Notes under the pieces: model-generated | What the model was told of the DNA's origin: nothing | The model's database searches: none | The model's input: only the letters and a program-made list of their open reading frames with translations | Assembly (NCBI RefSeq): GCF_028330965.1 | Contig: NZ_JAQMUB010000102.1 | Location: 1 to 32,130, forward strand | Direction of reading: 5' to 3' | Source of the DNA: Oscillatoria sp. CS-180 | GTDB taxonomy: Bacteria; Cyanobacteriota; Cyanobacteriia; Phormidesmidales; Phormidesmidaceae | DNA length: 32,130 nucleotides | Program-made: the position numbers and the translations under genes | Part shown: positions 10,760 to 30,961 of the stretch, piece after piece | Numbering within the stretch: position 1 is the first letter of the stretch | Layout of the letters: each line of letters opens with the position of its first letter

Positions 10760-11022
10760 TACCGCTTAACCCACGCTTCCAACAGTTCAGCAATCAAATC
10801 AGAGAAATCCCCCTCATAGTCCACTAGCGATCGCTTCACCTCTTTGTTCAGCTCCTTGGGAATATAGGCCCCCACCTGAATGTAGTTCGGGTCCGATCGC
10901 TTCCCCGTCGCCTTCCGCTGTCGTCGCTTGGGTTCGTCCGGTGCTGGCTCTGACGGTGGAGTCGCCTTAGCTTTTTGGCGATTCTGCGCCAACTTGTCAA
11001 ACATGCTCGCGGGATCAGCCAT
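10759..11022 (-). CDS. RHH partition partner (ParB/ParG-type)
   Basis: 87 residues from the ATG at 11022, chosen because AAGGAGA lies about 10 bases upstream; a TTG at 11031 sits too close to that site. The first 45 residues are basic and Pro-rich, as in the mobile tails of ParG-like proteins that stimulate ParA ATPase. The rest, NYIQVGAYIPKELNKEVKRS then FSDLIAELLEAWVKR, is a ribbon-helix-helix domain. The gene overlaps the end of parA by 8 bases. It should bind the TTAA palindromes flanking the locus and both segregate the plasmid and repress the operon. Confidence 0.75.
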   Translation of the reverse strand: MADPASMFDKLAQNRQKAKATPPSEPAPDEPKRRQRKATGKRSDPNYIQVGAYIPKELNKEVKRSLVDYEGDFSDLIAELLEAWVKR

Positions 11023-11611
11023 AACTCTCAATCTCCTTTGCTAGCGACTCATACTCTCTCCAGGCGATGCGACCGAAGCGATCGCCCGTCTCATACACCG
11101 GCACCCCAGCAAGGGCCGCTTTTTCATAAGCGGTTAAACGCCTAATCATTTGATTAAACACCGGAATGCTTAAGCGGTTAAGCGTTTCTTTAGCTTGTTC
11201 AGCCGTACTTTTCTTACGGCTGTCTACCATCGTCAGGACGACCCCGTAGGCATCCAGGTTTTGGAGGTGATCGACGGTGACCAGCAGCGCTTCCAGGGCC
11301 AGCGCATCCGGTGTGGAGGGTAGCACCAGCAGATCACAGCCTGACGCGAGGGCCTCCAGTTCGTCTTCGTCGGGGTGCGCTTCAGTGTCTACGATGACAT
11401 GGTCTTTGCCGCGAGACGCCTTAGCCGCCGCCATCAAGTCACACACCTGGAAGGGCAGGGTGCCCCGCTTGGACCAGGAAAGAGAGGAGCGATTGGGGTC
11501 GCCATCAACGAGCAGGGTCTTTTCGGACTGTTGAGCGAAGTAGCAGGCTAGATGGATCGCGGTGGTCGTTTTGCCCACGCCCCCTTTGAAGCCAGCAACG
11601 GTGATGATCAT
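11015..11611 (-). CDS. parA: ParA/ParF-type partition ATPase
   Basis: 198 residues, typical of the short ParF/Soj-like type without an HTH domain. The deviant Walker A motif FKGGVGKTT is at residues 8-16, the A' region LLVDGDPNRSS at about 34-44, and the Walker B-like region DHVIVDTEAH at about 69-78. These proteins bind ATP and nonspecific DNA to move the plasmid-partner complex apart before division. It overlaps its RHH partner by 8 bases. Inside its coding region the dyad GCTTAAGCGGTTAAGC (11168-11183) resembles the flanking repeats. The ATG at 11611 follows TTAA repeats that probably serve as operator. Confidence 0.93.
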   Translation of the reverse strand: MIITVAGFKGGVGKTTTAIHLACYFAQQSEKTLLVDGDPNRSSLSWSKRGTLPFQVCDLMAAAKASRGKDHVIVDTEAHPDEDELEALASGCDLLVLPSTPDALALEALLVTVDHLQNLDAYGVVLTMVDSRKKSTAEQAKETLNRLSIPVFNQMIRRLTAYEKAALAGVPVYETGDRFGRIAWREYESLAKEIESYG

Positions 11612-25410: not shown

Positions 25411-26298
25411 CTAATCGTCGATTTCGCGATCGCCACGAGGAAGGGTCAGATTCTCAAGCTGAACCTGAATGTAGAAGACCCACAGAAGCGTTAGAAATTC
25501 CTCAAGGAGCCGGAGGCGAATCTGCCAGGGAGAGGCTTTGCTCTTCTCCATACGCCGCTGCAAGACTCCTAGCTCAGCAGCACACTCTTCTGGCAAAAAG
25601 GCAATGAGGTGGGCTTTAGAGGGCACAGCATAACCCCGCGATCTAATCGTTAGAACCAGTAAGGCAAGCAATACAAACACCGACAACCCTAGTAAGACAC
25701 TGGCCTGGAGAAAAGCACGAGCACGGCTAGATTCACTCCCATGGAGGCGCTCTAAGTCTCTTCCCTGTTGGAGTTGCAACCCATGAACGTGTGCTAATTC
25801 GATGTCCACGACAATCACAAGTACACTCACCAGCTCCCGCTCCAGCGCCAGCTCCAGCACCAGCGCCCGCTCCAGCGCCAGCGCCCGCTCCAGCGCCAGC
25901 TCCCGCTCCCACGCCAGATCCAGCGCCAGATCCTGCTCCAGCGCCAGATCCTGCTCCAGCGCCAGATCCAGCGCCCGCTCCAGCGCCCGCTCCAGATCCA
26001 GCACCAGATCCTGCTCCAGCGCCCGCTCCAAACTCGCAGTCACGCTCAATTGCTTTCGGTCAGCTATCAGTTGAATTTCAGATCTTGCAGAAGCTTGCTG
26101 CTGACTTGAACTATTTGCATCAGTCAGCACCTCTACTTGCTGAGCCAGATCCAAAGCCCATTCGGGTTGCTGGGGGCGATGTCTTAACACCGCCTGTAGT
26201 TGCAGCACAGAAAGACCTAGAAAGGCTACGGCTCCAACACTCATCAGCACACGATCGCGCCACAGTCTCCGAATTTTTCGCTTCAGCGCCTTATCCAT
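25411..26298 (-). CDS. Two-helix membrane protein with a dipeptide-repeat array, PadR partner
   Basis: 295 residues. It begins one base after the PadR stop codon. A basic N-terminus (KRKIRRLWRDR) and a transmembrane helix (about 18-37) are followed by an array of ER/AL/DL/EQ/EL dipeptides (about 88-165; for example LEQDLALEQDLALDLA), a second transmembrane helix (about 197-217), and a C-terminal cytoplasmic domain with EECAAELGVLQRRMEKSKAS and an aromatic end. The array is encoded by hexanucleotide repeats; the plus strand in the same place reads Ala-Pro/Asp-Pro, but the PadR coupling and the transmembrane helices support this strand. A sensor or partner of the PadR regulator is inferred. Confidence 0.65.
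   Translation of the reverse strand: MDKALKRKIRRLWRDRVLMSVGAVAFLGLSVLQLQAVLRHRPQQPEWALDLAQQVEVLTDANSSSQQQASARSEIQLIADRKQLSVTASLERALEQDLVLDLERALERALDLALEQDLALEQDLALDLAWERELALERALALERALVLELALERELVSVLVIVVDIELAHVHGLQLQQGRDLERLHGSESSRARAFLQASVLLGLSVFVLLALLVLTIRSRGYAVPSKAHLIAFLPEECAAELGVLQRRMEKSKASPWQIRLRLLEEFLTLLWVFYIQVQLENLTLPRGDREIDD
25830..26030. repeat. Hexanucleotide array of about 200 bp
   Basis: On the plus strand six-base units CCAGCG, CCAGAT, CCTGCT, CCCGCT and CCAGCT follow each other with a strict period of six. On the coding (minus) strand they encode dipeptides ending mostly in Leu. Period-six arrays expand by slippage without breaking the frame. A different array of the same period lies in the 28248 gene. 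Confidence 0.85.
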
Positions 26299-26915: not shown

Positions 26916-27113
26916 ATGAGAACTACCGTGACCTTAACCCACAGCCACACTGCTCATCAGCGCCGCCTCCGGGAGATGGTGAAACGCTTGGTGATTGAGC
27001 TGGGCTATCTAGAGCATTGCCTAGAGCAGGGCTTACAGGAAGCCCATGTGCAAGCAGCGGCAACTGGAATTGATACTGCGATCGACCGGCTGAATGAGCA
27101 CTTATCGACCTAA
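26916..27113 (+). CDS. Small helical hypothetical protein
   Basis: 65 residues; GAGGA lies nine bases before the ATG. The protein is nearly all helix: a His/Arg-rich start (HSHTAHQRRLREMVKRLVIE), then LGYLEHCLEQGLQEAHVQAA and IDTAIDRLNEHLS. The two helices could form a dimeric bundle. A terminator follows at 27149, so it is a single-gene unit. Not recognised. Confidence 0.55.
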   Translation: MRTTVTLTHSHTAHQRRLREMVKRLVIELGYLEHCLEQGLQEAHVQAAATGIDTAIDRLNEHLST

Positions 27114-27265: not shown

Positions 27266-27437
27266 GGTCGTTGAGATCGCCCTCCCACTCATCCTCTCAG
27301 GCTCTTGTGTGGCAGCGCTCAGACTTCTCAGGAAGCGATTAAGGCAGGCTTATTTTGCAGTCAGGAACGCCTCAGGGAGGGCCTGCACTATAGAACTCAA
27401 GATGATTGAAACAACACATCAACCCAGGAGTTCAACC

Positions 27438-27944
27438 ATGAAACGCATTGCATTAGCCCTCACTGCTCTGACCGCTGTTACCATCGCTGTTGCCCCCGCT
27501 AGCCACGCTGCCATTGACTTCGACGAGCTACGCCGCGAGAACCTGGAAAAAGACGCCGTCAACTTTGACGAGCTGCGCCGCGAGAATCTTGACAAGGATG
27601 CAGTCGAAACCATTCAGGTGAAAGCGATCGACTTCGATGAATTACGCCGTGAGAATTTAGATAAGGATGCCGTAGACTTCGACGAATTGCGTCGTGAAAA
27701 CCTCGACAAAGACGCGGTCTACCAGGTCGCTGCCGTTGATTTTGACGAGCTACGCCGTGAGAATTTAGACAAAGACGCTGTGGACTTCGATGAGCTGCGT
27801 CGCGAGAACCTTGACAAAGATGCGGTTTATGAGGTGGTGGCCGCGATCGACTTTGATGAACTGCGCCGGGAAAACCTGGAGAAGGATGCCGTTGATTTTG
27901 ATGAGCTGCGTCGTGAGAACTTGGAGAAAGACGCGATTGCATAG
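27438..27944 (+). CDS. Exported protein with eight copies of a 15-residue repeat
   Basis: 168 residues from the ATG at 27438, with AGGAG eight bases upstream. MKRIALALTALTAVTIAVA and ASHA are a classic signal peptide, with cleavage expected near residue 24. The whole mature protein is eight copies of [DN]FDELRRENL[ED]KDA in four tandem pairs, separated by short linkers (ETIQVKAI, YQVAAV and YEVVAAI). Each copy would be a charged helix. The DKDAVDFDE part loosely resembles a calcium-binding or dockerin loop but misses canonical positions. The eight repeats are almost identical in protein yet use different codons. A terminator follows at 28015. I do not recognise an assigned function; a surface or periplasmic role is inferred. 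Confidence 0.8.
   Translation: MKRIALALTALTAVTIAVAPASHAAIDFDELRRENLEKDAVNFDELRRENLDKDAVETIQVKAIDFDELRRENLDKDAVDFDELRRENLDKDAVYQVAAVDFDELRRENLDKDAVDFDELRRENLDKDAVYEVVAAIDFDELRRENLEKDAVDFDELRRENLEKDAIA
27513..27941 (+). repeat. Eight-fold protein repeat with diverged codons
   Basis: The core FDELRREN is the same in all eight units, but the DNA is not: Glu, Leu, Arg and Asn codons vary from unit to unit (for example GAGCTACGCCGCGAG, GAATTACGCCGTGAG, GAACTGCGCCGGGAA). This is protein-level conservation rather than recent DNA duplication. Confidence 0.85.
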
Positions 27945-28014
27945 CTAAGAGTCAGAATGCAGTACTCTCCTCACTCTTGAGCCAACGAAACGCCAACGAC
28001 TCACACCCTCTTTT

Positions 28015-28045
28015 GCCTCCTTGCACTTACCAAGGGGGCTTTATT
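28015..28045 (+). terminator. Terminator of the exported repeat gene
   Basis: GCCTCCTTG pairs with CAAGGGGGC with one G-U pair around a seven-base loop, followed by TTTATT. It lies about 70 bp after the stop codon. Confidence 0.65.
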
Positions 28046-28247
28046 CAAGCTTGGTGCCCGAACTCCAACGAGCATCAATCATCTTCAGGGCACTAGGGGC
28101 CTCAGCTCGTCATGGGTTGGGGCCTTTCTCATGCAAAACTTTGGTCGGTCGGCACATTTCCTGAGTCGGCAAAGAGTGTAAATAGGATCAAGGCTGTAAT
28201 TCTCCTACTTACACATATAAAATCTCAGTGTCGTAGAACATGTAGAC

Positions 28248-29378
28248 GTGCAGAAACTCTTGCCTTCAACGCCTCCACAAACATTATCCTTTCAGGATCG
28301 CTTGTATATCATTCAGACTATGAATGGCTTACCATCAGCTCAGTTTGAGGAATTGTGTTTTGCTCTCAATCCCCCCAAAGGAATTCTCCCCTCCAACACT
28401 GCACCTCAGGGTGAAAGAACTAAAGCCTTATTAGATTGGGCAGAAGGTCCCACTGGGCCAGGGCTAGTATCCATTGACCAAGGATTAGAGATATTTGTCC
28501 CCAAAATTACTCAGCCTGAACAATCCCCAATCCCTAAAGCCTTTGCTGTCAGCGGCAAAATGGGTGATCTTTCTCCAGCGGAACTAGCAGCGATCGTTCA
28601 GCTCCTGAGACAAAAAACAGGTGATGGCTCCATTGAGCTTGCTTTCTTCACAGAGGGCAGTATCAAGCTAGTTCTAAACGGTACGCCTGAAGGATTAGAT
28701 AAGCTGCAAGAGCTGTTCGATTCAGCCGAACTGACTGAAGTTTTAGATAATCGACCGGTTGAGTATGTTCGTTCGATTGAGAGCAGTTCAACCGAAGCCA
28801 GAAAAGCTCGCTTACTTCAAGTTCTCAGAGTCTATGCAGAAAAAAGAAAACTAGATATAGTCCGAGCCCGAGAACTGGCCCGAGAACTAGCGCGAGACCT
28901 AAACCTAGACCTCGTCCAAGCTCAGACTCCGAACCGAGCCCGAGACCTAAACCTAGACCTAGCCCGAACTCTAGCGCTAGCGCTAGTACTAGCCCTAGCC
29001 CGGAACCTAGCCCTAGCCCGAACTCTAGCGCGAGACCTAAACCTAGCCCTCGTCCGATATCGAGAGCTAAACCGAGACTTAGACCTAGACCTAGCCATGA
29101 ACCTGGTTCACGCCCGTTACTTAGCCCTTGCCCGAGTCCTAAGCCTATTCGTAGATATTGATTTCGGCTATGCCGACTTGAGTGGCGCAAATCTCCGTAG
29201 ACTTGACCTCAGAGGAGTCATTCTTGAAGGGGCAGACCTCAGCGATGCTGACGTAACTGGAACCCTGTTTGGCGATAACCCAGGACTCACAGAAGCGAGC
29301 AAACGTGACTTACAGCAGCGTGGGGCCATCTTCCAAGAGCCTCCCAGTTCTGATGTGCCAAGCTTAGTACTGCGGTAA
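28248..29378 (+). CDS. Conflict-system-like adaptor: EAD-like domain, dipeptide array, pentapeptide repeats
   Basis: 376 residues from a GTG at 28248 (in-frame TAA 30 bases upstream; ATG 28320 is an alternative). Residues about 25-85 (MNGLPSAQFEELCFALNPPK, then GERTKALLDWAEGPTGPGL) match the effector-associated-type domain seen at the N-terminus of many cyanobacterial NACHT and caspase-like proteins. A second module (about 105-180) has GSIELAFFTEGSIKLVLNG and EGLDKLQELFDSAELTEVL, also common in that setting. Then comes an array of RDL/NL/DL/AL dipeptides (about 205-300) and a short pentapeptide block (YADLSGANLRRLDLRG and EGADLSDADV). No catalytic domain is present, so it is likely a signalling or adaptor part. 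The exact family number of the N-terminal domain is not asserted. Confidence 0.65.
   Translation: MQKLLPSTPPQTLSFQDRLYIIQTMNGLPSAQFEELCFALNPPKGILPSNTAPQGERTKALLDWAEGPTGPGLVSIDQGLEIFVPKITQPEQSPIPKAFAVSGKMGDLSPAELAAIVQLLRQKTGDGSIELAFFTEGSIKLVLNGTPEGLDKLQELFDSAELTEVLDNRPVEYVRSIESSSTEARKARLLQVLRVYAEKRKLDIVRARELARELARDLNLDLVQAQTPNRARDLNLDLARTLALALVLALARNLALARTLARDLNLALVRYRELNRDLDLDLAMNLVHARYLALARVLSLFVDIDFGYADLSGANLRRLDLRGVILEGADLSDADVTGTLFGDNPGLTEASKRDLQQRGAIFQEPPSSDVPSLVLR
28864..29145 (+). repeat. Hexanucleotide array encoding [RDNA]-Leu dipeptides
   Basis: Six-base units such as CGAGAC, CTAAAC, CTAGAC, CTAGCC and CGAACT repeat with a period of six over about 280 bp. The encoded protein alternates charged or small residues with Leu. 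The base units differ from those in the 25830-26030 array, so the arrays arose independently or have diverged completely. Confidence 0.8.
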
Positions 29379-29385
29379 CAAAGAG

Positions 29386-29883
29386 TTAGGTTTTGTGGCC
29401 ACGATCTCGCTCCATATCCACAAACCGTCCCTCCATCTGCCCCTCTCCCCGCCGCACCAAACCATACGGAGCGACCGCCCCCGGCAACAACGACAACTGC
29501 AAACCCTCTTCCCACGGGGCATCAATCCTGAGCTGCCCATAGAACTCAGCCTTAAGCCGCTTCTGTGTAGCACGAAACCGACTATCAAAGCGCAGATGAC
29601 AGACGGTACAGAGAGCCTTCAAGTTGGCGCGATCGCGATTCCCAGGCCGCTGATCCAAATGGGCCACCGTCAGCAGATAGCGCCGAGGTGCGGCGGCAAA
29701 GTCAGGCGGCTGAGGGGTGTTGGCCTGCCGCCATGCCTGCACCCGCTGGAGGAAATCAGCTAGTGGTTCGCTGGGCTGGCGACAGGGGCGCTGGCACTGT
29801 TCACAGCACCACTTTGCCTCGTGCTTTACTTGAAGCGCGATCGCGTCCCAGTCGTCGGGATATCTAGCGCGAATGATGGGCAT
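29386..29883 (-). CDS. HNH endonuclease-like protein
   Basis: 165 residues. WCCEQCQRPC (about 25-34) and ALCTVCHLRFDSRF (about 90-103) give the two CxxC zinc knuckles, and LTVAHLDQRPGNRDRANL (about 70-87) holds the His and Asn of the HNH motif. The fold is a beta-beta-alpha metal nuclease. It follows the Rep-like gene with a 4-bp gap and is co-transcribed with it. Such plasmid HNH proteins may nick or cut DNA in replication, recombination or defence. The C-terminal part after about residue 120 is unassigned. Confidence 0.85.
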   Translation of the reverse strand: MPIIRARYPDDWDAIALQVKHEAKWCCEQCQRPCRQPSEPLADFLQRVQAWRQANTPQPPDFAAAPRRYLLTVAHLDQRPGNRDRANLKALCTVCHLRFDSRFRATQKRLKAEFYGQLRIDAPWEEGLQLSLLPGAVAPYGLVRRGEGQMEGRFVDMERDRGHKT

Positions 29884-29887
29884 AGGG

Positions 29888-30961
29888 TCAGCTCCACTGC
29901 GTCATTGCTGCTAGCAGCAGATCCATATCATCGCCATCAAGATCGGCAAACTGTTTAGGTTCCCATCCATAGGCTTCAGAAAGCCGCTGAACGGCCTCAT
30001 CCCGATTTAGACCCAATCGCTCACACTCTAGGCTTATACCCAGCAGCACGCCGCTTAAATCCCGCACTGGCGGAACATTTGTTCTCTCCTGTTTCTGTTC
30101 GCTGTTTTGCGATCGCTTTTGCTTAGCTTGGTTGGCTGTAAAGCCCCGTTTAAGGGCGGCATTTAGAAATGCTTGGGGACTTCTTATATGGTCTTGCTCT
30201 TCTAAAGAAGAGAGTGCATTGCGAACTCTGGCAGCTGCGCTATCCGGATCGCTGTGATAGAGGTTCGTCAAAGTTGCCGCGATCGCTGGATTGACTGAAA
30301 CCCCAGCCGCCTCAATTCTCCCCAGCAATGTACCAATATCCTCTCTGTCAATTTCCACAGAGGGGTTCGCTTGAGAACCAGTCTGTTTGTTTAAATGTTT
30401 TAAAACAGATCTGGTACATTCTGTGGAAAACTCAGAATCGCTGAAAGCATCTCTCTGCAAGGCTTTTGCGTTTTCCACAGGCAAGGGCATTTCCCCCTCA
30501 AGTGTTGCCTCACGATCGTTTTTGTTGCGCTGAGGCAACACTTGTTGCACTGGTGCAACGCTGTTGTCCTGAGGCAACACTTTTTCCACAGCATTTTTGT
30601 CCGAGTGTTGCGCTGGTGCAACACCGTTGCGTAGAGGCAACACTTTTTCCCCACCCTGATTGGTGTGTAGCTTCACTCTGGCCGACATAATCTCTAGGTC
30701 GATCCAGCCTTTTGCATCAAGCGCTTTCAGGGCACGGCTCACCGTACTCGGGCTAACGTTGAGTTCCCTGGCCATCTCCCTCACTTTGATATCGATAGGA
30801 TTATCGCCAAAGGGGTCTAAGGTTCGTAGGTAGTAAAGGATGTCTTTTTCGCTGGGCCTAAGCTCACGGCAGGCCCGTATCCACTCTTCCGAGGTCAGGC
30901 GGTAATGTAGATTTCTTTCACCCTGCCTCGTCTGATGATATTCACTTTTCTGTGTCATCAT
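29888..30961 (-). CDS. Replication-initiator-like winged-helix protein
   Basis: 357 residues. The N-terminal domain (about 18-105) opens LHYRLTSEEWIRACRELRP, with LYYLRTLDPFGDNPIDIKVR and the HTH VSPSTVSRALKALDAKGWIDL. I associate this block with cyanobacterial plasmid replication or control proteins. A Pro/Gln/Asn-rich linker (about 105-160) contains the repeats KVLPLRNGVAPAQ and KVLPQDNSVAPVQ, and carries the DNA dyads described separately. The C-terminal part (about 180-357) is helical (IGTLLGRIEAAGVSVNPAIA). The start is ATG 30961 or 30958. It is the best candidate for the plasmid Rep; this is inferred from context, as no other Rep is visible. Confidence 0.65.
   Translation of the reverse strand: MMTQKSEYHQTRQGERNLHYRLTSEEWIRACRELRPSEKDILYYLRTLDPFGDNPIDIKVREMARELNVSPSTVSRALKALDAKGWIDLEIMSARVKLHTNQGGEKVLPLRNGVAPAQHSDKNAVEKVLPQDNSVAPVQQVLPQRNKNDREATLEGEMPLPVENAKALQRDAFSDSEFSTECTRSVLKHLNKQTGSQANPSVEIDREDIGTLLGRIEAAGVSVNPAIAATLTNLYHSDPDSAAARVRNALSSLEEQDHIRSPQAFLNAALKRGFTANQAKQKRSQNSEQKQERTNVPPVRDLSGVLLGISLECERLGLNRDEAVQRLSEAYGWEPKQFADLDGDDMDLLLAAMTQWS
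30524..30641. repeat. Five iteron-like 16-bp dyads inside the Rep-like gene
   Basis: GTTGCGCTGAGGCAAC (30524), GTTGCACTGGTGCAAC (30544), GTTGTCCTGAGGCAAC (30563), GTTGCGCTGGTGCAAC (30607) and GTTGCGTAGAGGCAAC (30626). All are GTTGC...GCAAC dyads, the second a perfect inverted repeat with a 2-bp centre. Within each group the steps are 19-20 bases. A half site GTTGCCTCA is at 30504. Two sub-types alternate. This is the size and spacing of replication iterons. Confidence 0.7.

What the first reader, a model, noticed from the sequence alone, without database searches (positions are those of the whole stretch)
27438..27944. Exported protein built only of eight near-identical charged repeats, under protein-level selection
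After a clear signal peptide, the mature protein is eight copies of FDELRRENL[ED]KDA arranged as four tandem pairs with short hydrophobic linkers. The amino acids hardly change but the codons do, so the repeats are old and the peptide sequence is being kept. Such strong purifying selection on a simple helical repeat implies a specific binding role (cell surface, periplasm, or a polymer or metal ligand). I know of no described system with this repeat; similar fragments may exist in other cyanobacteria.
Basis: partly seen in the sequence, partly recalled or inferred. Interest (0 to 1): 0.82.

Follow-up and report, generated by a model that had tools for sequence, protein, structure and literature searches.

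The report
Exported repeats mirror a bacteriocin-type peptide
This cyanobacterial gene makes a probably exported chain of eight copies of a short charged peptide, and the same genome encodes that peptide a second time as a small precursor beside a bacteriocin-type export system, which points to one undescribed extracellular peptide system with two export routes.

Summary
Confirmed: 27438-27944 encodes a signal-peptide-like start and eight FDELRRENL[DE]KDA units in four pairs; codons are randomised while the peptide is nearly fixed (pN 0.034, pS 0.99). It is one of eight dispersed repeat genes in its genome. New: a ninth locus encodes the same two-unit peptide behind a double-glycine leader, divergent from an NHLP bacteriocin-type export operon; NHLP genes adjoin such peptides in 13 of 17 lineage-A stretches. 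In lineages with other versions of the peptide, the double-glycine core and the exported repeats change together (0 of 5000 permutations, 20 genomes; 2 of 720, 6 genomes), while leaders stay alike. Many repeat genes share a PhoB/OmpR-type promoter geometry. AlphaFold gives no confident fold (pLDDT 40.5). The two forms do not always co-occur. Best reading: one exported peptide in two forms, acting at the cell surface or in the matrix by multivalent contact. Export, partner and activity are untested. No paper holding the sequence strings tried was found.

The parts
27276..28129 (.). Dispersed unit: the stretch shared with other copies in the genome, promoter to 3' flank
   Evidence: Alignments to other copies: 27313-28127 (82%, C41), 27276-28074 (83%, C69), 27292-28079 (76%, C64), 27281-28129 (68%, C40); shorter for C34 and C92
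27318..27378 (+). Promoter array: CTCAG at 27318 and five 8-bp boxes at 27327, 27338, 27349, 27360 and 27371 (11-bp spacing)
   Evidence: Conserved upstream of many repeat genes
27389..27394 (+). -10-like TATAGA, 10 bp after the last box
   Evidence: Same hexamer or a close one at 10 bp in 28 of 37 arrays
27426..27430 (+). Likely ribosome-binding site AGGAG
   Evidence: Read from the sequence; inference
27438..27509 (+). Signal-peptide-like segment, 24 residues, probable cut after SHA
   Evidence: Judged by eye; not predicted by a program
27519..27605 (+). Repeat pair 1 (units 27519-27560 and 27564-27605)
27633..27719 (+). Repeat pair 2 (units 27633-27674 and 27678-27719)
27741..27827 (+). Repeat pair 3 (units 27741-27782 and 27786-27827)
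27852..27938 (+). Repeat pair 4 (units 27852-27893 and 27897-27938)

Best explanation
The gene encodes a multivalent, probably exported form of a short peptide motif (general form R-x-[ED]-[NH]-L-[DN]-[KN], written by me from the lineages seen). A two-unit stretch of the repeat is the core of a small double-glycine peptide encoded beside an NHLP-type export operon in the same genome. Shown by sequence: the repeats, the selection, the paralogs, the shared promoter, the double-glycine form beside the operon, and the genome-by-genome agreement of the two forms. Inferred: both forms leave the cytoplasm; both are met by one co-evolving partner, or by each other; a PhoB/OmpR-type response regulator switches on the repeat genes. 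Function I commit to: unmodified, acidic, mostly unfolded chains that act at the cell surface or in the extracellular matrix through many identical weak contacts (adhesion or matrix building), with the double-glycine peptide as the short two-unit form. It would work like the secreted double-glycine EbfG proteins of Synechococcus elongatus. My confidence in 'one peptide encoded in two export-directed forms' is about 0.9; the figure given is for the whole statement with the surface/matrix role.
For: Eight repeat genes plus one double-glycine gene in the genome. NHLP models over cut-off beside the double-glycine gene: TIGR03796 1103 bits, TIGR03797 993, TIGR03896 209.7. NHLP genes beside such peptides in 13 of 17 lineage-A stretches; CAP_ED protein in 5 of 5 lineage-C genomes looked at and in one lineage-B genome, HlyD-like alone in three further lineage-B stretches. 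Leader-core-leader-core genes in three genomes mark the pair as the core. The two forms vary together: 0.670 own vs 0.501 permuted, 0 of 5000; 2 of 720 in family f24. Identical peptide units of the two forms share only 0.78 of their DNA in the own genome (0.80 among repeat units), so recent gene conversion is not the cause. Mature protein 49 acidic vs 25 basic residues of 143. No confident fold, eight short helices. EbfG1-4 are secreted double-glycine proteins needed for biofilm, with EbfG4 at the surface and in the matrix (passages of PMC4997328 and PMC9981879).
Against: No sequence link to EbfG was tested and EbfG1-3 form amyloid, which this acidic repeat gives no hint of. The forms do not always co-occur: G032 and G363 show a single, double-glycine match; G016, G035 and G314 have repeat genes while their over-cut-off CAP_ED loci carry unrelated double-glycine peptides. 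In four of eight lineage-B double-glycine stretches no CAP_ED or HlyD-like gene was found. The HlyD-like protein is below the TIGR03794 cut-off (72 vs 156.2). Within lineage A alone the agreement is small (0.753 vs 0.735, 79 of 5000). The permutations do not model species relatedness. AlphaFold had only 22 sequences.
Confidence: 0.4

Rival explanations
1. Bacteriocin with self-protection: the double-glycine peptide is a toxin against close relatives, and the repeat proteins are periplasmic decoys or blockers that occupy the same receptor in the producer.
For: NHLP operon and CAP_ED protein of the bacteriocin type; one lineage-C relative over the CTB bacteriocin cut-off; matching, lineage-specific sequences of the two forms; many repeat copies would give a high dose.
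Against: Genomes with only the double-glycine match (G032, G363) and genomes with repeat genes only; acidic, non-amphipathic-looking peptide (inference); no toxic activity known for it.
Confidence: 0.2
2. Peptide signal with two sources: the repeat protein is a polyprotein cut outside the cytoplasm into two-unit peptides, the same signal that the NHLP route exports directly.
For: The window protein equals four cores in a row with linkers; leader-core-leader-core genes release cores by double-glycine cuts (inferred); lineage-specific sequences as in pheromone types.
Against: No conserved cut site: linkers differ between lineages and lineage-B repeats run on without a separate linker. No receptor was sought.
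Confidence: 0.2
3. Neutral or selfish repeat cassette: dispersed copies without a cell function, kept in frame by chance or by an unknown mobility.
For: Dispersed copies, a remnant with promoter and 3' flank but no gene at C30, relatives with stops inside the matched stretch.
Against: pN/pS near 0.03 among units; promoter and peptide conserved across genera; agreement with the double-glycine form. No mobilising gene was identified; I did not search for one beyond neighbour comparison.
Confidence: 0.05

Closest known systems
Cyanobacterial bacteriocin gene clusters, group V (Wang, Fewer and Sivonen 2011, PMC3140520; first part of the text and find passages seen)
   Same: CAP_ED protein, HlyD, short C39 peptidase ABC and a second ABC without peptidase, with a double-glycine precursor nearby
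   Different: The paper's passages seen mention no repeat proteins with a signal peptide that copy the core; in the loci seen here the peptide is divergent from the operon
CTB family bacteriocin, NCBIfam NF038167
   Same: A lineage-C double-glycine relative scores 32.6 against a cut-off of 32
   Different: The own-genome double-glycine peptide scores 14.5; the window protein does not appear in its NCBIfam list up to E 10
EbfG1-4 and PteB of Synechococcus elongatus (PMC4997328, PMC9981879; passages seen)
   Same: Small double-glycine proteins, C39 peptidase transporter, role in biofilm, surface and matrix
   Different: No sequence comparison made; no repeat-protein partner in the passages seen
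Pentapeptide MXKDX repeat protein, TIGR02953
   Same: Signal-like start followed by KD-containing repeats; 39.5 bits
   Different: Below the cut-off of 41 and no methionine repeat in the window protein
Cyanobacterial Pho boxes (SphR) (PMC1906773; passages seen)
   Same: Tandem 8-bp boxes with 3-bp linkers; the paper gives 10 bp between boxes and -10 for E. coli PhoB
   Different: Boxes here are CTCAG-type, not CTTAACCT

Membership tests
Group V / NHLP export cluster (tests the double-glycine locus L045, not the window gene) | C39 peptidase ABC transporter TIGR03796 | tested here: met
   1103.1 bits, cut-off 853.3
Group V / NHLP export cluster (tests the double-glycine locus L045, not the window gene) | Second ABC without peptidase TIGR03797 | tested here: met
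   993.4 bits, cut-off 709.4
Group V / NHLP export cluster (tests the double-glycine locus L045, not the window gene) | CAP_ED transport-associated protein TIGR03896 | tested here: met
   209.7 bits, cut-off 161.05
Group V / NHLP export cluster (tests the double-glycine locus L045, not the window gene) | HlyD-like protein TIGR03794 over cut-off | tested here: not met
   72 bits, cut-off 156.2; 188 residues against a model of 421
CTB family bacteriocin NF038167 | Score over 32 bits | tested here: not met
   Own double-glycine peptide 14.5, L106 24.4, L118 13.3; only the lineage-C relative L190 passes with 32.6. Window protein not listed
NHLP or Nif11 leader peptide (TIGR03793, TIGR03798) | Score over cut-off | tested here: not met
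   L190: 19.7 vs 50.9 and 17.6 vs 32.3; own peptide not listed
Pentapeptide MXKDX repeat protein TIGR02953 | Score over 41 bits | tested here: not met
   39.5 bits
Any Pfam family (window protein) | Score over a gathering cut-off | tested here: not met
   Best DUF7348 21.2 vs 27
EbfG-type biofilm proteins | Secreted and needed for biofilm | not testable with these tools
   Needs experiments
Cyanobacterial Pho (SphR) regulon | Tandem CTTAACCT boxes of 8 bp with 3-bp linkers | tested here: inconclusive
   Spacing met, consensus differs; the comparison with PBP_like_2 genes was not decisive, best three-box scores 11-17 of 24

The most novel reading that the evidence does not exclude
A kind of system not described before: one diversifying exported peptide made in two physical forms, a short double-glycine form through an NHLP exporter and a long multivalent form through a signal peptide from many gene copies. 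Its sequence is kept alike within a genome but differs between lineages. It would act as a lineage-specific self-recognition or self-adhesion code of filamentous cyanobacteria.
Probability: 0.33. Interest if true: 0.92.

Novelty: new variant of a known kind. Interest (0 to 1): 0.8.

Why it matters
Cyanobacterial genomes hold many double-glycine peptides beside NHLP-type exporters, and for most of them no role is known (recalled, and the tone of the papers seen). A second gene family with a signal peptide that copies the core of such a peptide, in matching genome-specific versions, gives a direct handle on what the peptide binds and on whether these 'bacteriocins' are toxins, signals or matrix parts. 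It also means that precursor searches limited to genes beside a transporter miss most copies of this peptide. The shared promoter makes the condition of expression testable.

Tried and rejected
Known family: Pfam, NCBIfam and PDB searches gave no member for the window protein; PDB hits at E about 1 (TnsB) were taken as chance. For relatives, RHH_3 (23.7 vs 21.6) and Mst1_SARAH (24.2 vs 23.1) slightly exceed Pfam cut-offs on lineage-B and lineage-C repeats with no stretch passing on its own; taken as repeat artefacts.

Lone exported protein: rejected, nine matches in the genome.

Fixed neighbour of the repeat genes: in 33 loci compared, the recurrent neighbours besides the repeat gene itself and its upstream region were few: a 65-aa ORF in 5, an ORF like window 29386-29883 in 3, a DUF4278-like ORF in 4. 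No fixed partner.

Phage or plasmid gene: no plasmid match; two uncultured huge-phage records at 33% identity, not followed.

Calcium or metal binding: not tested.

SphR control: not concluded.

Gene conversion as the cause of agreement: identical double-glycine and repeat units share 0.78 (own genome, 74 pairs), 0.83 (G012, 1 pair) and 0.81 (G005, 13 pairs) of their DNA, maximum 0.889.

Obligate pairing of the two forms: rejected.

Caveats: units were taken by a pattern anchored on R, so divergent units were missed, and lineage labels A/B/C were given by me partly from the motif; the 20-genome permutation does not use the labels, but neither permutation models species relatedness. In one search the G156, G215 and others' repeats were typed from loci then in hand, not from all copies. 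In one search the collecting pattern fixes some box letters, and the -10 hexamers came from a list I wrote. The profile contains the leader, so some of its 45 matches share the leader only: G198's core is unrelated, and G253 and G302 were not resolved.

Full report
Observation. The ORF at 27438-27944 encodes 168 aa: a signal-peptide-like start and eight near-identical units in four pairs. Among the eight units pS is 0.993 and pN 0.034. Of 370 codon pairs for the same residue 230 differ; random codon draws give 227.5 +/- 10.0. The synonymous sites carry no memory of common origin while the peptide is nearly fixed.

A gene family. The genome (G000, 6.5 Mb, unnamed; the window is contig C45) has nine matches: eight repeat genes with a signal-peptide-like start and one short gene described next. 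In the relatives search 22 of 59 genomes match, own genome included. With the double-glycine profile, 45 of 388 genomes of the class sample match, 37 of them in the same family; some of the other eight share the leader only. Ten named loci place relatives in Tildeniella, Nodosilinea, Adonisia turfae, Leptolyngbya PCC 7375, Leptolyngbya Heron Island J, two unnamed filamentous cyanobacteria and three Leptolyngbyaceae MAGs.

The double-glycine form. At C7 the same genome encodes MTEQAKKDANPKGEQLSDDQLKDVSGG followed by VNFDELRRENLDKDATNFDELRRENLDKD. It lies divergent from an operon whose products score as CAP_ED transport-associated protein (209.7 bits, cut-off 161), C39 peptidase ABC (1103, cut-off 853) and second ABC (993, cut-off 709), with a reduced HlyD-like protein below cut-off (72, cut-off 156). 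NHLP genes lie beside such a peptide in 13 of 17 lineage-A stretches; the other four are contigs of 3.9-6.6 kb. Six of six further named lineage-A loci, four of them the same contigs again by length, show the CAP_ED and HlyD-like genes. The set matches group V of Wang et al. 2011 (PMC3140520; first part and passages seen). By eye I saw no modification enzyme among the ORFs of at least 150 aa in the three loci listed; only the transport proteins were scanned against families. In three genomes the gene reads leader-core-leader-core, which marks the two-unit stretch as the core. The window protein is thus, in sequence, four such cores in a row.

The two forms vary together. In Adonisia-like genomes (lineage B) a double-glycine core is NKLHEQRLEHLDNQSKSVKDIQAERLDQLDERTK, and the signal-peptide repeats are of the type VHKLRLEHLNNQTKAIEDIQAARLDALDARTK; 12 of 16 family genomes tested match that repeat profile. 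In family f24 (lineage C) the core is LNERFDQARLENLDKG and the repeats are LTDRFDEARRENLDKG. Smaller changes within f24 also go together: G239 has ERESTLNK and EKSQKDNLDS in the double-glycine form, EERQETLNA and DKSYRDNLNS in its repeats. Over 20 genomes with both forms in hand, own-genome similarity is 0.670 against 0.501 +/- 0.033 permuted, 0 of 5000; within lineage A alone 0.753 vs 0.735, 79 of 5000, 11 genomes. Within f24, six genomes, 2 of 720 permutations reach the observed value, the identity pairing being one of them. Double-glycine cores of A and B are 0.33 identical while A cores and A repeats are 0.69 and B cores and B repeats 0.54; leaders of A and B are 0.76 identical. Under separate vertical descent the cores should resemble each other across lineages more than they resemble the repeats; the opposite is seen. 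The permutations do not model relatedness. Identical units of the two forms share 0.78 of their DNA in the own genome, against 0.80 among repeat units, so recent gene conversion is not the cause.

Export genes in other lineages. A CAP_ED protein lies beside the peptide in 5 of 5 lineage-C genomes looked at. In eight lineage-B double-glycine stretches, one has CAP_ED, HlyD-like and C39 ABC genes, three have the HlyD-like gene only, and four show neither.

Limits of the pairing. G016, G035 and G314 have repeat genes, but their over-cut-off CAP_ED loci carry unrelated double-glycine peptides. G032 and G363 have a single, double-glycine match. The pair is not obligate.

Promoter. In the own genome, 9 sites fit CTCAGNNTTCTCAGNNANNNNTTA with at most one mismatch: 7 of the 8 repeat genes, one remnant that keeps promoter and 3' flank but no gene (C30), and one DUF4278 gene. 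At up to two mismatches there are 16 sites against 6 for the reversed-pattern control. A second, longer pattern gave 17 against 7. In eight further genomes there are 28 sites with at most one mismatch (control 2), all in four genomes; 23 of 28 lie upstream of a repeat gene, and G006, G034, G033 and G021 have none. In 37 distinct arrays five 8-bp boxes follow at 11-bp spacing, and in 28 of 37 a TATAGA-like hexamer starts 10 bp after the last box. PMC1906773 reports this geometry for PhoB boxes (passages); the box sequence differs from the cyanobacterial CTTAACCT. Regulator and signal are unknown. Nodularia CTB bacteriocin genes rise under phosphate limitation (PMC9846622, passages), a suggestive but separate fact. 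Double-glycine genes have their own upstream motif, TTTTTTCAGGCAGACA or a close variant, in 14 of 17 rows.

Structure. AlphaFold2 on 22 sequences gives mean pLDDT 40.5, pTM 0.14 and eight short helices. This fits a string of peptide units but is weak evidence.

Mechanism and rivals. The sequence facts support one peptide in two export-directed forms. I commit to multivalent contact outside the cytoplasm (adhesion or matrix), by analogy with EbfG proteins (PMC4997328, PMC9981879, passages). A bacteriocin with a decoy, and a peptide signal with a polyprotein source, remain open. No ligand, export or activity was shown.

Novelty. No paper in the library holds the strings tried for lineages A, B and C or the leaders; topic searches found known cluster types and no repeat-protein counterpart in what I saw of them (listings, and passages where named). 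The library lacks most subscription papers. I rate it a new variant of a known kind, the double-glycine/NHLP peptide systems; for the repeat-protein half I found no described counterpart.

Noticed in passing
L065:2776-2949 (G000 C92): A 58-aa DUF4278 protein (47.3 bits, cut-off 25.3) has the repeat-gene promoter array upstream; DUF4278-like ORFs also lie near repeat genes in four other loci.
   Followed up: partly
L067:3126-3590 and L045:10082-10588: Secreted-looking DM13 proteins: one 112 bp after a two-mismatch promoter site, one about 400 bp from the double-glycine gene; DM13-like stretches also near that gene in L099 and L109.
   Followed up: partly
L066:1996-2997 (G000 C37) and L222 (G003 C80): A promoter-array-like site lies about 540-590 bp upstream of a sigma-70-type factor in two genomes (two mismatches and one mismatch); it may be part of the same regulon.
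   Followed up: no
window 25411-26298 (-) and 28248-29378 (+): Two proteins flank the gene with long low-complexity stretches of short L/A/R/D/E repeats (ALERALDLAL and LALARDLNLDL types), also repeated at DNA level.
   Followed up: no
window 11015-11611 (-) and 29888-30961 (-): A ParA-like ATPase (CbiA domain) and a winged-helix protein of a kind I recall from cyanobacterial plasmids; the contig could be a plasmid or mobile region (recall).
   Followed up: no
window 26916-27113 (+): A 65-aa ORF without Pfam match lies upstream of the repeat gene here and near repeat genes in four other loci, so part of the copies arose by longer duplications.
   Followed up: no
LR745206.1:199422-199775 and LR756502.1:226154-226507: Two uncultured phage records of 635 and 642 kb encode a stretch 33% identical to the repeat protein, perhaps only by composition.
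   Followed up: no
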